Part shown: piece after piece, positions 701 to 10,776 of the stretch
Numbering within the stretch: position 1 is the stretch's first letter
Layout: every line of letters begins with the position of its first letter
Assembly (NCBI GenBank): GCA_005240025.1
Contig: SBBK01000119.1
Coordinates: forward strand, 1-10,776
Direction: 5' to 3'
DNA length: 10,776 nt
Origin: an archaeon
GTDB lineage: Archaea > Thermoproteota > Nitrososphaeria > Nitrososphaerales > Nitrosopumilaceae
Translations under genes and position numbers: made by a program
The notes under the pieces: generated by a model
Databases searched by the model: none
The model's input: only the letters and a program-made list of their open reading frames with translations
What the model was told of the DNA's origin: nothing

Positions 701-1180
701 CTAAAGCCGGATCGTTTTGAGGCGCTTCCACGCCGAGACGTCCTTTGAGGTTTTGTTGATGGTTATCCTGTCAAAGGTAAACCTTGACTTGATTTTCAGA
801 TCACGAATTATTGCCCTTCTGGTTCTGGCATCCATTTTTTTGTAAATGAGGCTGATGTGCGGCTCAAAGACATATTTCGCTGGCCCCGCACAGCCAGCGA
901 TGGTTTTGTAGAGTGTATCAAGGCGACGGTTTTTTCGAATACGGACGAAGACTGTTTTCCACAGATACTCTGAATGTTTTATGTCGAGGGCCTGGACCGA
1001 AAGCGGCCAAGTTTTGCAGTTTCGCACACAGTCAAGGGCTTTTGCATATGTCACACCACTGTACAGTGTCAGGTGTGGTGCAAATTCCGGCGCGCCATGT
1101 TTTTTTGCAAGGGCGCGGATTATTTTTCTTAGATATTTTGCATCGTTTTTTGACGGTTCAAGCCAGATGGATGTGGTCAT
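701..1180 (-). CDS. 2H phosphoesterase (cyclic phosphodiesterase / 2'-5' RNA ligase-like)
   Basis: 159-aa protein with the two HxT/S signatures of the 2H superfamily: H36-L-T38 in the context APHLTLYSG, and H108-I-S110 in EPHISLIYK. These place two histidines and two hydroxyl residues for attack on a 2',3'-cyclic phosphate or 2'-5' linkage. The N-terminal SIWLEP and the spacing match the plant/yeast cyclic nucleotide phosphodiesterase (CPDase) branch better than the LigT/ThpR branch, and the length is right for it. The natural substrate cannot be read from sequence. Candidates are ADP-ribose 1'',2''-cyclic phosphate from tRNA splicing or RNA ends. The start overlaps the stop of the upstream cupin gene as ATGA, so the two are probably co-translated. 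Confidence 0.85.
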   Translation of the reverse strand: MTTSIWLEPSKNDAKYLRKIIRALAKKHGAPEFAPHLTLYSGVTYAKALDCVRNCKTWPLSVQALDIKHSEYLWKTVFVRIRKNRRLDTLYKTIAGCAGPAKYVFEPHISLIYKKMDARTRRAIIRDLKIKSRFTFDRITINKTSKDVSAWKRLKTIRL

Positions 1181-7879: not shown

Positions 7880-8122
7880 CTACATCTTTAGAATTTCTTT
7901 TGTTTTGTTAACAAATACTTCTGCATTTATTACAAGGTTTTTTGCTTGGGTAGGAGATACCAGCTCTGCATTGTCGTATGTGAATTCGTGCCAGAGTTTT
8001 CTGGCCCTGTCAAATGAGTCCAATACATCTTTTGAAAATTTTGTGGAAAATACGTCTTGTACGAACATCACTACCGCAACGTGATGATCTCTTCCTTTTG
8101 GCCTGTAATCCTTAGAAAACAT
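7880..8122 (-). CDS. HEPN domain protein, C-terminal half
   Basis: 80-aa frame starting MFSKDYRPKGRDHH. It continues the HEPN domain of the preceding frame: the family normally reads HAxRALLF-xKGYRPK without a break, and here the halves end at HAGRA and resume at MFSKDYRPK. The Rx4-6H RNase-like motif can be placed at RARKLWH (R-x5-H), followed by TYDNAELVS and a last helix with NAEVFVNKTKEIL. The ATG overlaps the previous TAA by one base (TAATG), so it may be made by termination-reinitiation, by -1 frameshifting, or not at all. HEPN proteins paired with MNT nucleotidyltransferases are usually the toxin RNase. The exact RX4HXY motif of HepT, AMPylated by MntA, is not present. Confidence 0.75.
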   Translation of the reverse strand: MFSKDYRPKGRDHHVAVVMFVQDVFSTKFSKDVLDSFDRARKLWHEFTYDNAELVSPTQAKNLVINAEVFVNKTKEILKM

Positions 8123-8322
8123 TATGCTCTACCAGCGTGTAACATTACATTATATGCAGTGACATAGGCCAATCCCCATTCATTTATCCCCAGTACATTT
8201 TTTGCCGATGTCATTTTTTTATTTGCATTATCAAGTTCGTTTTCAATCTGCTCCTTATCAGATTCAAACTTTTCAACTAGATCTTGTTTCAATAGATCGC
8301 TTAAATTCATCCTCTTCACCAA
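8122..8322 (-). CDS. HEPN domain protein, N-terminal half
   Basis: 66-aa frame carrying the first helices of a HEPN domain: a charged helix SDKEQIENELDNANKKM, then INEWGLAYVTAYNVMLHAGRA, equivalent to the AYYAMFHAARAL helix of the family. It stops at TAA (8122-8124) exactly where the next frame begins. Inserting one base (GCA TTA ATG in place of GCATAATG) would restore RALMF and give one protein of about 147 aa. ATG 8322 overlaps the end of the MNT fusion gene by 50 nt; ATG 8310 (MNLSDLL) is an equally good start with a 38-nt overlap. Translation is thus coupled to the putative antitoxin gene. Confidence 0.72.
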   Translation of the reverse strand: MVKRMNLSDLLKQDLVEKFESDKEQIENELDNANKKMTSAKNVLGINEWGLAYVTAYNVMLHAGRA

Positions 8323-9277
8323 CTATCATCATTATTGGAGTCTTTGAGATCTCTCTTATCAGAGGTATTTTCTTACCCACTCTTTCCAAAAATTCCTCCT
8401 CTTTCCACAACAAGTAATTTATCTCGCGGCCTATTGTCCTTTCTGTTTTAGATATAGATCTGAGAAGAGTATTCTCGTTTACATCACCTATTATCAGCAA
8501 ATCAATATCGCTTGATTGTGATTCAGTTCCCTTTGCAAAAGATCCATAAATTAGTGCATACTTGATCTTTTCTTTTGGCAAATCTCGAGAAATTATTTCA
8601 TCAAGCATTTCGAATTTTAGAAATATCCGTTTTAATTCGCTATAGATAACACTTTGATTATTTATCTTATAAAACACCAAGTTCCCCTGAGTTCTTCTTA
8701 GAACCAATCCAATATTCTGAATTACAGGCATTTCTTTCGTTATGGTAGAAGGAGCCAATCCGGTTTTTCTTGCCATGTCGTTTGCATGGAATTCATTTGA
8801 AGAATTTAAGAATAGTAATTTTAGAATCAAAACCTGTGCTCTAGATCTGAAGAGATTTTCAAGTGAGCTCTTAATCGATACAGATTGCTGTGACTTTTTC
8901 CTCTCTTTAAAAACAATATTCTTGACAGAGGGAAGTACATTGCCCCCCATTGGTTTGGTAACCTCCTCCACCCCATCATTAACTAACAAGAGCCCTATTC
9001 CCAGACTTTGGCAAGAGTTCAGAATCATTCTAGTAGATCTGTCTTTTGGAATTGCAAGATATGAGAAGTTTACAGCATTCTTCTGGTGTAGTGCCTGTTC
9101 TATTCCTAGCTGCATAACTCCAGAGCCTCCCTTGATCTCTATAGCTGTTATTTTGTTGTCTTTGGTAGCTACGATATCTATAATTCTCCCTCGCAGCTTT
9201 ACTTCATGAGAGATCTTCCATCCTTTCTTTTCCAGATGCTTTTCTACCTTTTGTGATATGACATGCTCTGTGTTCAT
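8273..9277 (-). CDS. PD-(D/E)XK nuclease - winged helix - MNT nucleotidyltransferase fusion
   Basis: 334-aa protein with three parts. Residues 1-110 look like a restriction-endonuclease fold: E25, D34 in GRIIDIVATKD, the E47-x-K49 of TAIEIKGG, a Q in GIEQALHQ (RecB-type glutamine), then strands FSYLAIPKD and IGLLLV. Residues about 143-208 form a winged helix, with recognition helix APSTITKEMPVI and wing LVFYKIN. Residues about 235-325 are a minimal nucleotidyltransferase with GSFAKGTESQSSDIDLL, exactly GSX10DXD (D257, D259). The usual third acidic residue is unclear (E285 in REINYLLW). MNT/HTH proteins partner HEPN toxins, where MNT modifies and silences the RNase; the downstream HEPN fits. 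The winged helix probably binds its own promoter, which has a large dyad. The nuclease-like domain is the unusual addition. Confidence 0.88.
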   Translation of the reverse strand: MNTEHVISQKVEKHLEKKGWKISHEVKLRGRIIDIVATKDNKITAIEIKGGSGVMQLGIEQALHQKNAVNFSYLAIPKDRSTRMILNSCQSLGIGLLLVNDGVEEVTKPMGGNVLPSVKNIVFKERKKSQQSVSIKSSLENLFRSRAQVLILKLLFLNSSNEFHANDMARKTGLAPSTITKEMPVIQNIGLVLRRTQGNLVFYKINNQSVIYSELKRIFLKFEMLDEIISRDLPKEKIKYALIYGSFAKGTESQSSDIDLLIIGDVNENTLLRSISKTERTIGREINYLLWKEEEFLERVGKKIPLIREISKTPIMMIVGEEDEFKRSIETRSS

Positions 9278-9281
9278 AAAG

Positions 9282-9327
9282 TACCATTTCTATTTGACGA
9301 ATGATTGTTCGCTAGATAGAAATAGTA
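9282..9327. promoter_or_regulatory. 38-bp dyad operator before the nuclease-wHTH-MNT gene
   Basis: Arms 9286-9301 and 9308-9323 are inverted repeats matching at 13 of 16 positions (outer ATTTCTAT/ATAGAAAT and inner CGAA/TTCG perfect) around a 6-bp centre. It covers the predicted transcription start and leader of the gene starting at 9277. TACCATTTCTAT on the plus strand (9282-9293) and TACTATTTCTAT on the minus strand (9327-9316) form its outer parts. Confidence 0.6.
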
Positions 9328-9333
9328 TTTCTG

Positions 9334-9345
9334 CTATAAATAGTA
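9334..9345 (-). promoter_or_regulatory. TATA box / third operator copy
   Basis: Minus-strand TACTATTTATAG contains TATTTATA, well placed for transcription starting near 9312. It also matches the operator motif TACYATTTMTAT at 11 of 12 positions, so a factor recognising that motif would compete with TBP. Confidence 0.5.
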
Positions 9346-9361
9346 CCGGATCAGCACTGAG

Positions 9362-9469
9362 CTAGTAACTAGTTTTGGCATGGGCATAATCTTTGAGCTT
9401 AATTGTTTGTCCATTTGTCTGTGAATTTGCCAGCTTGTAAACAGAATAATCAACAAGCCAGCGAAAGAG
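9362..9469 (-). pseudogene. cas1: Out-of-frame C-terminal remnant of cas1
   Basis: In the frame shifted relative to the cas1 reading frame, the DNA encodes LFRWLVDYSVYKLANSQ and then TIKLKDYAHAKTSY before TAG. FRWLVDYSV is what follows the DLxE motif in Cas1, so this is the continuation of cas1 after a frameshift near 9470. It ends at 9362, in an 11-bp palindrome CTAGTAACTAG. The helices that usually follow (the FLELL-type segment and the casposase C-terminal region) are absent, so the gene is also truncated. Confidence 0.75.
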
Positions 9470-10244
9470 TCAAGTCATACACCAGAGATTGAAATGAGGC
9501 GTCTTGTTTATGGTAGAAGCCATAGTAAGGATCGAGACCCAAGCCATTCACAAACTTGGCAATCTCTCCAGCCAAAACCGTATATCCATAATTCAAAAGT
9601 ACATTGATAACATCAGAGGCACAGCGTTTGGAATTGACAAGACCTCCACCATGCCTAGACTGAAATCCATATTTGGCAGGAATAAGCTTTGCATAATTCA
9701 GAAAATAGTATCTACCACAGCCGCTTTCAATTGCTCTTAGCCCCTTTGAATCCGTTTTAGAGTCGATTTGGGAATGGTGTGATTCAAGTTTAGAAATTTC
9801 ATCTTGTATCTCTGGCTTTTCTAACGATTTGAGAAAGTTGATTTGGGATTGGATCTTCTCCTTTAGAATCCATTTCTGCAAGTGCAAGACCTTTACAGGA
9901 TCTCGAAAGGCATCGTATTGTCCCATTCGGTATTTAATGGCAGTATTGGAAACCATTCCGCCATTCATAAAAGAGACAGGATTGCCATAGATGTCAGTCA
10001 GAATCACGCTGATGTTGTTTTGGTTTAGAATTGAGATTGCCTCAGTTGAAACGTAGCCTTTTCCAGAAATCACAATTTTCTCGTATGGGATTTTTGAAAC
10101 AAACCATTCTTCTTTTTCTGAGATCCCAGTAATGTCATTTTGACCATTTTTTAGAATAATCTTGTTATCTTTTACATTAATTGAAATACCGTAGCCTCGA
10201 AGGAGTTTTACATTGTAATGATTTCGTTGCCACCTCTCAGTCAT
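9450..10244 (-). CDS. cas1: Cas1-family integrase (casposase-like), frameshifted and truncated
   Basis: 264-aa frame with clear Cas1 architecture: an N-terminal strand domain (about 1-100: LLRGYGISI, IVISGKGYVSTEAI, ISVILTDIYGNPVSF), then the helical integrase domain. Metal ligand E173 is in RAIESGCGRYYF and H245 in GLDPYYGFYHKQ, and SLVYDL has D257. The next ligand, expected at position 260 in a DLxE/D context, is lost: the frame reads DLTLSLAC and stops. About five bases (TAGAA, if the ancestor read DLIELFRW) seem missing near 9470, and the rest follows out of frame. Cas1 integrates DNA at CRISPR arrays or, as casposase, mobilises casposons. The HNH neighbours and lack of Cas2 or repeats favour a casposon. 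The start overlaps the HNH stop (ATGA). Likely inactive. Confidence 0.93.
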   Translation of the reverse strand: MTERWQRNHYNVKLLRGYGISINVKDNKIILKNGQNDITGISEKEEWFVSKIPYEKIVISGKGYVSTEAISILNQNNISVILTDIYGNPVSFMNGGMVSNTAIKYRMGQYDAFRDPVKVLHLQKWILKEKIQSQINFLKSLEKPEIQDEISKLESHHSQIDSKTDSKGLRAIESGCGRYYFLNYAKLIPAKYGFQSRHGGGLVNSKRCASDVINVLLNYGYTVLAGEIAKFVNGLGLDPYYGFYHKQDASFQSLVYDLTLSLAC

Positions 10245-10597
10245 TTTACGGAATAGCCTTTCTGGAAATTACACTGATAGCATAACGGTTGAATATTGTC
10301 AATATCATTGGTTCCTCCTTTCAGTAATGGAATGATGTGATCTTCAGTAATCTTGTACCTAGCATTTCCCTTGGAATTAGGAATATCCTCCCATTTGCGA
10401 TTACAACTAGGACACCTTTCATACTGCCTAAGTTTTTCAAGAAATTCCTTTTCAGTGTGTGAACCTTTTGCGTTCTTTTTCCTTTCAGAGTATTTCCTTG
10501 CTCTTTCACGCCTGCAGATTTTACAGTATTTATGAACGGTTCCATCAGTAGATGTCCATGTGCTCCAATTATCGTGACCTTTACCGCAGAGAGTCAT
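10241..10597 (-). CDS. HNH endonuclease with zinc ribbons
   Basis: 118-aa HNH nuclease. The core is ITEDHIIPLLKGGTNDIDNIQPLCYQCNFQKG: D86-H87 gives the first His, N101 the middle Asn and N110 the last position of the H-N-H/N motif. Two CxxC pairs (C62-C65 in CPSC and C106-C109 in CYQC) hold a structural zinc. A second N-terminal ribbon is suggested by C4, H8 and C25-C28 (CKIC), followed by an Arg/Lys-rich helix RRERARKYSERKKNAK likely to contact DNA. Such HNH genes commonly sit directly upstream of cas1 in casposons. It is joined by ATGA overlaps to both neighbours, so the three genes form one transcription-translation unit. Confidence 0.9.
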   Translation of the reverse strand: MTLCGKGHDNWSTWTSTDGTVHKYCKICRRERARKYSERKKNAKGSHTEKEFLEKLRQYERCPSCNRKWEDIPNSKGNARYKITEDHIIPLLKGGTNDIDNIQPLCYQCNFQKGYSVK

Positions 10598-10776
10598 CTG
10601 AGTTCGCTTTTCTTTTTGTCTCTACCTTCTACTATTTTGTGACAGTTTTCACAGTAAATCACGATGTTAGTCCAGTCATCGTTTGCCCTGTCGCCGTCTT
10701 TGTGATGCAAATCTAATTTCGTTTGGTGTGCATTTTTACCACACTTGCTACAAATGGCTTTGTTTAAAGCTAGAAA
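10594..10776 (-). CDS. Partial second HNH endonuclease (C-terminal 60 residues)
   Basis: A frame open from the right window edge to TGA 10594-10596, so its start lies outside. It reads CSKCGKNAHQTKLDLHHKDG, then DRANDDWTNIVIYCENCH. That is a compact HNH fold: a CxxC pair, L-H-H-K-D-G-D with the catalytic histidines, the W-T-N-I Asn, and CENCH closing the zinc site, with a Lys/Arg/Glu-rich tail. Its stop overlaps the next HNH start as ATGA. Two different HNH proteins in a row before cas1 is notable. The rest of the element, such as a PolB polymerase if this is a casposon, would lie to the right. Confidence 0.85.
   Translation of the reverse strand, partial: FLALNKAICSKCGKNAHQTKLDLHHKDGDRANDDWTNIVIYCENCHKIVEGRDKKKSELR

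What the first reader, a model, noticed from the sequence alone, without database searches (positions are those of the whole stretch)
7880..9277. Three-domain nuclease-wHTH-MNT fusion coupled to a HEPN protein
Seen: PD-(D/E)XK-like D34/E47-x-K49, a winged helix, GSX10DXD of an MNT nucleotidyltransferase in one chain, and an overlapping downstream HEPN. Known: MNT/HEPN pairs (MntA/HepT) are toxin-antitoxin systems in which the toxin is nucleotidylated. Inferred: this version adds a nuclease-like domain and a built-in transcriptional regulator to the antitoxin, giving a possible self-regulated defence unit. The HEPN lacks the RX4HXY AMPylation motif, so control may differ.
Basis: partly seen in the sequence, partly recalled or inferred. 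Interest (0 to 1): 0.75.

Follow-up and report, generated by a model that had tools for sequence, protein, structure and literature searches.

The report
Nuclease-armed antitoxin with decayed toxin
An archaeal gene joins a DNA-cutting-type domain, a DNA-binding switch and a nucleotide-adding enzyme in one protein that sits beside a toxin-like partner; the pairing looks like a variant of a known toxin-antitoxin kind, with its own conserved control sequence, and in this genome the partner is broken.

Summary
The three-domain protein is real: PD-(D/E)XK domain (1-125), ArsR-type wHTH (about 138-210), MNT (about 234-327); catalytic residues are nearly invariant in the 120 relatives examined. The overlapping HEPN is real but broken here: frameshifted, and an arginine invariant in 50 relatives is tryptophan. 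Relatives show the same order with a HEPN starting at the fusion's end. The pair matches PADLOC's candidate PDC-M05 and the published 'Class II' HEPN/MNT module, which had no biochemistry by 2020. New here: (1) the nuclease domain fused to wHTH-MNT, seen in one archaeal class; (2) a 38-bp palindrome at the fusion's promoter, same length in 13 of 13 fusion loci, not found in three genomes where only the two-domain form was seen; (3) one-sided decay: in 24 loci HEPN is broken or absent in 12, the wHTH-MNT frame open in 11 of those; no intact HEPN stood beside a visibly broken partner. Best reading: a self-repressing nucleotidyltransferase antitoxin with an extra nuclease arm. The nuclease's role is unknown; defence is not shown. 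New variant of a known kind.

The parts
8273..9277 (-). Fusion CDS, PD-(D/E)XK - wHTH - MNT, 334 aa
8903..9277 (-). PD-(D/E)XK (MmcB/NERD-like) domain, residues 1-125; D34 = 9176-9178, E47 = 9137-9139, K49 = 9131-9133
8648..8866 (-). ArsR/SmtB-type winged helix, residues about 138-210
8297..8578 (-). MNT nucleotidyltransferase domain, residues about 234-327; GSx10DxD = 8501-8545
8122..8310 (-). HEPN, N-terminal part (62 residues and stop), overlapping the fusion's end by 38 nt
7880..8122 (-). HEPN, C-terminal part in another frame (80 aa); the invariant R110 is W here (codon 7991-7993)
9286..9323 (-). 38-bp dyad, putative autoregulatory operator, just upstream of the fusion start
9334..9343 (-). 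TATA-box-like tract (ctatttatag) upstream of the dyad
   Evidence: read by eye; inference

Best explanation
The locus is a nuclease-bearing version of an archaeal Class II HEPN/MNT (PDC-M05) module. The HEPN protein is the toxin-like partner. The fusion protein is the antitoxin: its MNT domain is expected to nucleotidylate the HEPN (the best acceptor candidate is the invariant Y115 in R110-x4-Y115-D116), and its ArsR-type wHTH is expected to bind, as a dimer or tetramer, the 38-bp palindrome at its own promoter and repress the operon. The overlapping order (antitoxin first, toxin start inside its end) would couple the two. The N-terminal PD-(D/E)XK domain is predicted to be catalytically competent and would add DNA cleavage or DNA-end recognition, perhaps linking the antitoxin to damaged or foreign DNA. 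In this genome the toxin half is dead (frameshift, R110W) while the fusion and its operator remain intact. Shown by computation: domains, motif conservation, gene order, dyad, one-sided decay. Inferred: toxicity, nucleotidylation of Y115, repression, nuclease activity and trigger.
For: Domains and motifs. PDC-M05A and M05B profile matches. Fusion followed by HEPN, with the HEPN start at or inside the fusion's end. HEPN: A54, Y55, H79, R107, R110, Y115 and D116 are 50/50; fold closest to AF0298 2hsb. PDB 9xbd/9xbc, a HEPN of which 9xbd has a nucleotidyltransferase partner, aligns at R110, Y115, D116 and H79 (not R107), and the two entries differ by Y to F at the Y115 column, which suggests that its depositors mutated this residue. 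Decay is one-sided: of 24 loci HEPN is intact in 11, broken or absent in 12, undetermined in 1 (contig end); in 11 of the 12 the wHTH-MNT frame is open, in 1 (G421) it is broken too; intact HEPN beside a visibly broken NTase: 0 of 11 (one, G141:C25, is cut by the contig end). Dyad: 13 of 13 fusion loci, equal length, 12 of 13 times the most symmetric 40-48 bp of the locus; elsewhere in the same genomes the pattern is rare.
Against: No experiment on this family was found. The HEPN lacks the canonical RX4H RNase motif, so RNase toxicity is unproven. The loci were found mainly by the NTase, which favours seeing NTase without HEPN. Left out of the 24 are remnants in which both halves are gone or broken: NTase fragments without an intact HEPN (G202, G159, G258:C7) and HEPN fragments without a detected NTase (G134:C111, G337 twice; G156:C16 not fetched). 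Of five fusion loci with a broken HEPN, two (G072:C57, G103) also have the linker frameshifted. Most genomes are multi-contig drafts, where a single frameshift can be an assembly error, though truncations, R110W and two single-contig genomes (G083, G103) are not easily explained so. Persistence of the fusion without HEPN could equally mean that it has a job of its own.
Confidence: 0.6

Rival explanations
1. Two-tier defence enzyme: the PD-(D/E)XK domain is the main effector against invading DNA, guided by the wHTH, and the HEPN is a suicide back-up released when the nuclease fails; MNT holds it in check.
For: Nuclease triad nearly invariant; PADLOC lists the wHTH-MNT/HEPN pair as a defence candidate; in 3 of 5 fusion loci with a broken HEPN the whole fusion stays open, as if useful alone. 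Anantharaman et al. (PMC3710099, passages) propose such a two-tier scheme for other REase-HEPN proteins.
Against: Among 41 flanking proteins of 11 loci the 25 of 57 Pfam families shown include no defence family shared between loci apart from two further nucleotidyltransferases (PADLOC was not run on them); no relative on viral contigs; two-domain relatives do without the nuclease; in 2 of 5 fusion loci with a broken HEPN the link to the nuclease is frameshifted while wHTH-MNT is open.
Confidence: 0.2
2. Roles reversed: the nucleotidyltransferase protein is the toxin and HEPN its antidote or substrate-binding subunit, as first proposed for MNT/HEPN in 2009 (PMC2701414, passages).
For: The 2009 proposal; in AbiE the toxin is a nucleotidyltransferase (recalled, from no call).
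Against: HEPN is lost or broken with the wHTH-MNT frame open in 11 of 24 loci, and the reverse was not seen; Class I pairs were shown to work with HEPN as toxin (PMC7641770, passages).
Confidence: 0.07
3. A chromosomal regulator or DNA-repair protein: wHTH plus MmcB-like nuclease act on host DNA, and the HEPN is a dispensable remnant of its origin.
For: Best fold match of the nuclease domain is 3dnx and three of the 120 listed homologues carry Pfam MmcB-like PF06319; several loci keep only the fusion.
Against: Patchy occurrence (full fusion in 10 of 400 class genomes) and a dyad nearly confined to its own promoter do not fit a housekeeping regulator; the HEPN frame is intact in 8 of 11 full-fusion loci.
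Confidence: 0.13

Closest known systems
[quoted passage not shown] PMC7641770, passages)
   Same: PF05168-type HEPN without RX4HXY but with a conserved tyrosine; MNT with GSX10DXD; adjacent genes
   Different: Antitoxin carries an N-terminal PD-(D/E)XK domain and a wHTH; conserved 38-bp dyad
PDC-M05 (PADLOC candidate; PMC12988326, passages)
   Same: M05A and M05B profiles match the wHTH-MNT part and the HEPN
   Different: The M05A match starts at the wHTH; the nuclease domain is extra
MntA/HepT, type VII, Class I
   Same: MNT fold and GSX10DXD; helical HEPN
   Different: No RX4HXY; NCBIfam MntA model far below cut-off (28 against 60 bits)
PaREP1/8 HEPN operons with MNT and REase (DUF1626) (PMC3710099, passages)
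   Same: Archaeal HEPN-T associated with MNT and a REase-fold domain
   Different: No DUF1626 match was listed for the window protein and the HEPN motif differs (that family lacks R); whether MNT and REase are one protein there I did not see

Membership tests
Class II HEPN/MNT module | MNT of PF01909 with GSX10DXD | tested here: met
   (37.5 bits, cut-off 21)
Class II HEPN/MNT module | Adjacent HEPN of PF05168 | tested here: met
   4 of 5 intact relatives tested pass the cut-off, L002 does not; in the window the HEPN is split and its C-terminal half scores below cut-off
Class II HEPN/MNT module | HEPN without RX4HXY, with conserved Tyr | tested here: met
   R110-x4-Y115-D116 in 50/50
Class II HEPN/MNT module | HEPN toxic, neutralised by MNT | not testable with these tools
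   Only one-sided decay as indirect evidence
PDC-M05 | M05A and M05B profile matches side by side | tested here: met
   5.8e-46; C-half of HEPN 4.4e-4; intact pairs: L002, and the HEPN of L005
PDC-M05 | Antiviral activity | not testable with these tools
   Called unconfirmed in PMC12988326 (passage)
MntA/HepT type VII, Class I | RX4HXY in the HEPN | tested here: not met
PD-(D/E)XK nuclease | Fold | tested here: met
PD-(D/E)XK nuclease | D...E-x-K catalytic residues | tested here: met
PD-(D/E)XK nuclease | DNA cleavage | not testable with these tools
ArsR-type autorepressor | wHTH fold with a palindromic operator at its own promoter | tested here: inconclusive
   Fold match; palindrome present; binding untested; NCBIfam HTH_metalloreg below cut-off

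The most novel reading that the evidence does not exclude
The nuclease domain turns the antitoxin into a DNA-sensing guard: binding or cutting of damaged or foreign DNA by the PD-(D/E)XK domain takes the wHTH off the 38-bp operator or stops nucleotidylation, so that HEPN is made and unleashed; an archaeal two-tier DNA-restriction and cell-suicide switch in two overlapping genes.
Probability: 0.2. Interest if true: 0.8.

Novelty: new variant of a known kind. Interest (0 to 1): 0.5.

Why it matters
[quoted passage not shown] This family gives three handles: a conserved dyad that can be tested for binding, an invariant tyrosine as the modification candidate, and natural decay series in which the toxin-like half dies first. 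The fused nuclease suggests a link between such modules and DNA damage or invasion.

Tried and rejected
Split-gene idea: in G072 and G103 the nuclease and the wHTH-MNT parts are in different frames; I first took this for a separate-gene ancestor, but the overlapping frames in the linker and the broken HEPN in both fit decay of a fusion.

Programmed frameshift in HEPN: window, G203 and G259 all break near the GRA-LMF stretch, but the shifts look different by eye, other loci break elsewhere, and the window also has R110W; rejected as the leading idea, not excluded.

Casposon cargo: the neighbour is Cas1/casposase-like, but I saw no Cas1 in the neighbour families shown for 11 other loci (25 of 57 families shown) and the contig ends in the next genes; not settled.

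First dyad pattern was one letter too long (39): it gave 7 chance places in 15 genomes, none at a fusion promoter, and none in the window; corrected. The corrected pattern's matches at the fusion loci are by construction; the test is the rest of the genome. Outside the promoters it matched four places: G116:C12 (both strands, AT-rich), G374:C8, G374:C122 and G134:C283; the reversed control matched twice, both in G116. It missed the more diverged dyads of G348, G103 and G072. The elements were picked by eye, so the shuffle values are after the fact.

Viral contigs: no relative (two short peptide patterns only). A first scan of genome contigs used one sequence and so found only close relatives.

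Literature: the searches showed no description of this three-domain fusion in the listings, nor in the passages read of six papers (PMC3710099, PMC2701414, PMC12988326, PMC7641770, PMC11586414, PMC6393860); no paper was read whole, and only open-licence papers are held. One search gave only unrelated matches for 9XBD/9XBC.

Fold search: the wHTH filled much of the list; only the stated alignments are claimed.

Full report

Conservation. A database search found 561 homologues; only the best 120 were listed and used, 302-385 aa long. D34 is 120/120, E47 119/120, K49 118/120; S246, D257 and D259 are 120/120. The nuclease site is therefore under constraint.

The HEPN partner. It starts at 8310, inside the fusion's end, reads 62 residues, stops, and continues in another frame from 8122 to 7880. 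In 50 relatives of at least 130 aa (43 listed proteins, one of them short at its C-terminus, and 7 typed from loci) A54, Y55, H79, R107, R110, Y115 and D116 are invariant. The window has W at R110 (codon 7991-7993). Of five intact relatives tested, four pass the PF05168 cut-off and L002 does not. The model of the Nitrosotalea bavarica HEPN (pLDDT 92) is closest to AF0298, 2hsb. Anantharaman et al. describe this HEPN-T type, with D in place of the canonical H and another conserved H in the helix 2-3 insert (PMC3710099, passages); H79 and R110-x4-Y115-D116 fit this. PDB 9xbd/9xbc share R110, Y115, D116 and H79, but not R107, and differ from each other by Y to F at Y115.

Known class. Yao and co-workers (author recalled) divide HEPN/MNT modules into Class I (RX4HXY) and Class II (PF05168, no RX4HXY, a conserved tyrosine) and write that no biochemical study on Class II was known to them (PMC7641770, passages). 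PDC-M05 is an archaeal-enriched candidate whose antiviral role is unconfirmed (PMC12988326, passages). The locus fits both descriptions by sequence. The nuclease domain is the addition.

Distribution. In 400 genomes of the class, 56 match at 1e-10, most of them over the wHTH-MNT part only; the full fusion is present in 10 genomes (11 loci), and two more (G072, G103) have it broken by a frameshift in the linker. In 250 genomes of the family, 13 match at 1e-40. In 398 genomes of the phylum, 10 match at 1e-25; the three outside the class match over the wHTH-MNT part only. A tree of the wHTH-MNT part groups all fusion rows at 92/99 together with one long-branch outlier (L024), compatible with one origin of the fusion but not proving it; the label count on the tree asks for 4 changes. 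The two fusions of this genome fall in different subclades.

One-sided decay. Twenty-four loci of the close family were judged: 21, and 3. Full fusion: 11 loci, HEPN intact in 8 (G000:C82, G116, G348, G028, G087, G134, G098, G374), broken in 3 (window, G156, G203). Linker-broken fusion: 2 (G072:C57, G103), HEPN broken in both. Two-domain: 10 loci, HEPN intact in 2 (G132, G565), broken in 6 (G072:C69, G083, G141:C37, G177, G259, G601), absent with the NTase itself broken in 1 (G421), undetermined at a contig end in 1 (G429). G141:C25 has an intact HEPN, its NTase cut by the contig end. So HEPN is intact in 11, broken or absent in 12; in 11 of these 12 the wHTH-MNT frame is open. An intact HEPN beside a visibly broken NTase was not seen (0 of 11). 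The HEPN gene is less than half as long as the fusion, so random decay would hit the fusion more often. Dropped before this count, because only fragments matched: G202, G159 and G258:C7 (NTase-protein fragments of 51-72 bits, no intact HEPN), and HEPN fragments without a detected NTase in G134:C111 and twice in G337 and in G156:C16 (not fetched). In the fetched ones both halves are broken or missing; they show that the NTase half decays too, but not that it goes first. More distant intact HEPNs checked by eye also have an MNT-motif neighbour (G013; G203:C13). The loci were found mainly by the NTase.

The dyad. Upstream of the fusion a 38-bp dyad (window 9286-9323) recurs with identical length in 13 of 13 fusion loci (linker-broken ones included), among them a relative only 47% identical, and twice in tandem in G098 and G374. 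It is the most symmetric 40-48 bp of its locus in 12 of 13 (not in L010). Arms covary: of 14 elements pair 7/32 is A-T in 7 and T-A in 5; pair 5/34 is C-G in 11 and T-A in 2. Shuffle tests give p from below 0.0001 to 0.015, after the fact, since the elements were picked first. A pattern made from these elements, searched in 15 genomes, found the promoters of 10 fusion loci by construction, four other places, and none in G083, G141 or G132, in which no complete fusion was seen; G141 has one contig-edge piece whose N-terminus is unseen. Some two-domain relatives have other dyads at the same place (L020, L022, L044). Whether the element acts as DNA or as an RNA hairpin is untested; fixed length, palindromy and the wHTH favour DNA.

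Surroundings. Two to four flanking proteins from each of 11 other loci (41 in all) were scanned against Pfam: 57 families matched, of which the 25 shown are ordinary chromosomal ones, none in more than two proteins; two proteins are further nucleotidyltransferases. PADLOC was not run on them. The module seems to be an isolated cassette at different sites. In the window its upstream neighbour is a Cas1-like gene whose best solved relative is 6opm, which I recall as a casposase.

Verdict. A real and conserved architecture, best explained as a self-regulated Class II HEPN/MNT antitoxin with a fused, probably active nuclease domain. In this genome the toxin half is dead. Defence remains a hypothesis. 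On checking against the calls I corrected counts and wording (remnant loci, the capped neighbour table, the AbiE statement now marked as recalled) and left the odds as they were.

Noticed in passing
window 9450-10244 (-): Cas1-like protein of 264 aa that ends early against the Cas1 profile and 6opm; by eye the sequence goes on in another frame. The only Cas1 match in this incomplete genome; with the HNH gene next to it this may be a decayed casposon end.
   Followed up: partly
window 10241-10776 (-): HNH endonuclease gene (Pfam 1.2e-11) and a second HNH-like frame, read by eye, that runs off the contig end.
   Followed up: no
L109 5449-6573 (-) and 5034-5423 (-): A 375-aa protein with an N-terminal PD...E-x-K-like motif (by eye), weak wHTH matches and MNT next to a PF05168 HEPN; the 47 listed relatives other than its own entry are 241-305 aa and cover at most 70% of it, so it looks like an independent one-off fusion of the same kind.
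   Followed up: partly
L109 3095-3553 (+): Stand-alone relative of the fusion's nuclease domain (E 2.3e-15; Pfam MmcB-like below cut-off) near two MNT/HEPN pairs.
   Followed up: partly
L015 and L016, upstream of the fusion: The 38-bp dyad is duplicated in tandem, copies 73 bp apart.
   Followed up: partly
L003 1130-2127; L004: Two more two-domain wHTH-MNT genes in the same genome, one with its own HEPN; L004's is at a contig end.
   Followed up: partly
PDB 9xbc / 9xbd: HEPN entries that differ by Y to F at the Y115 column; 9xbd also holds a nucleotidyltransferase; no paper found.
   Followed up: partly
window 701-1180 (-): Weak match to RNA 2',3'-cyclic phosphodiesterase, below cut-off.
   Followed up: no
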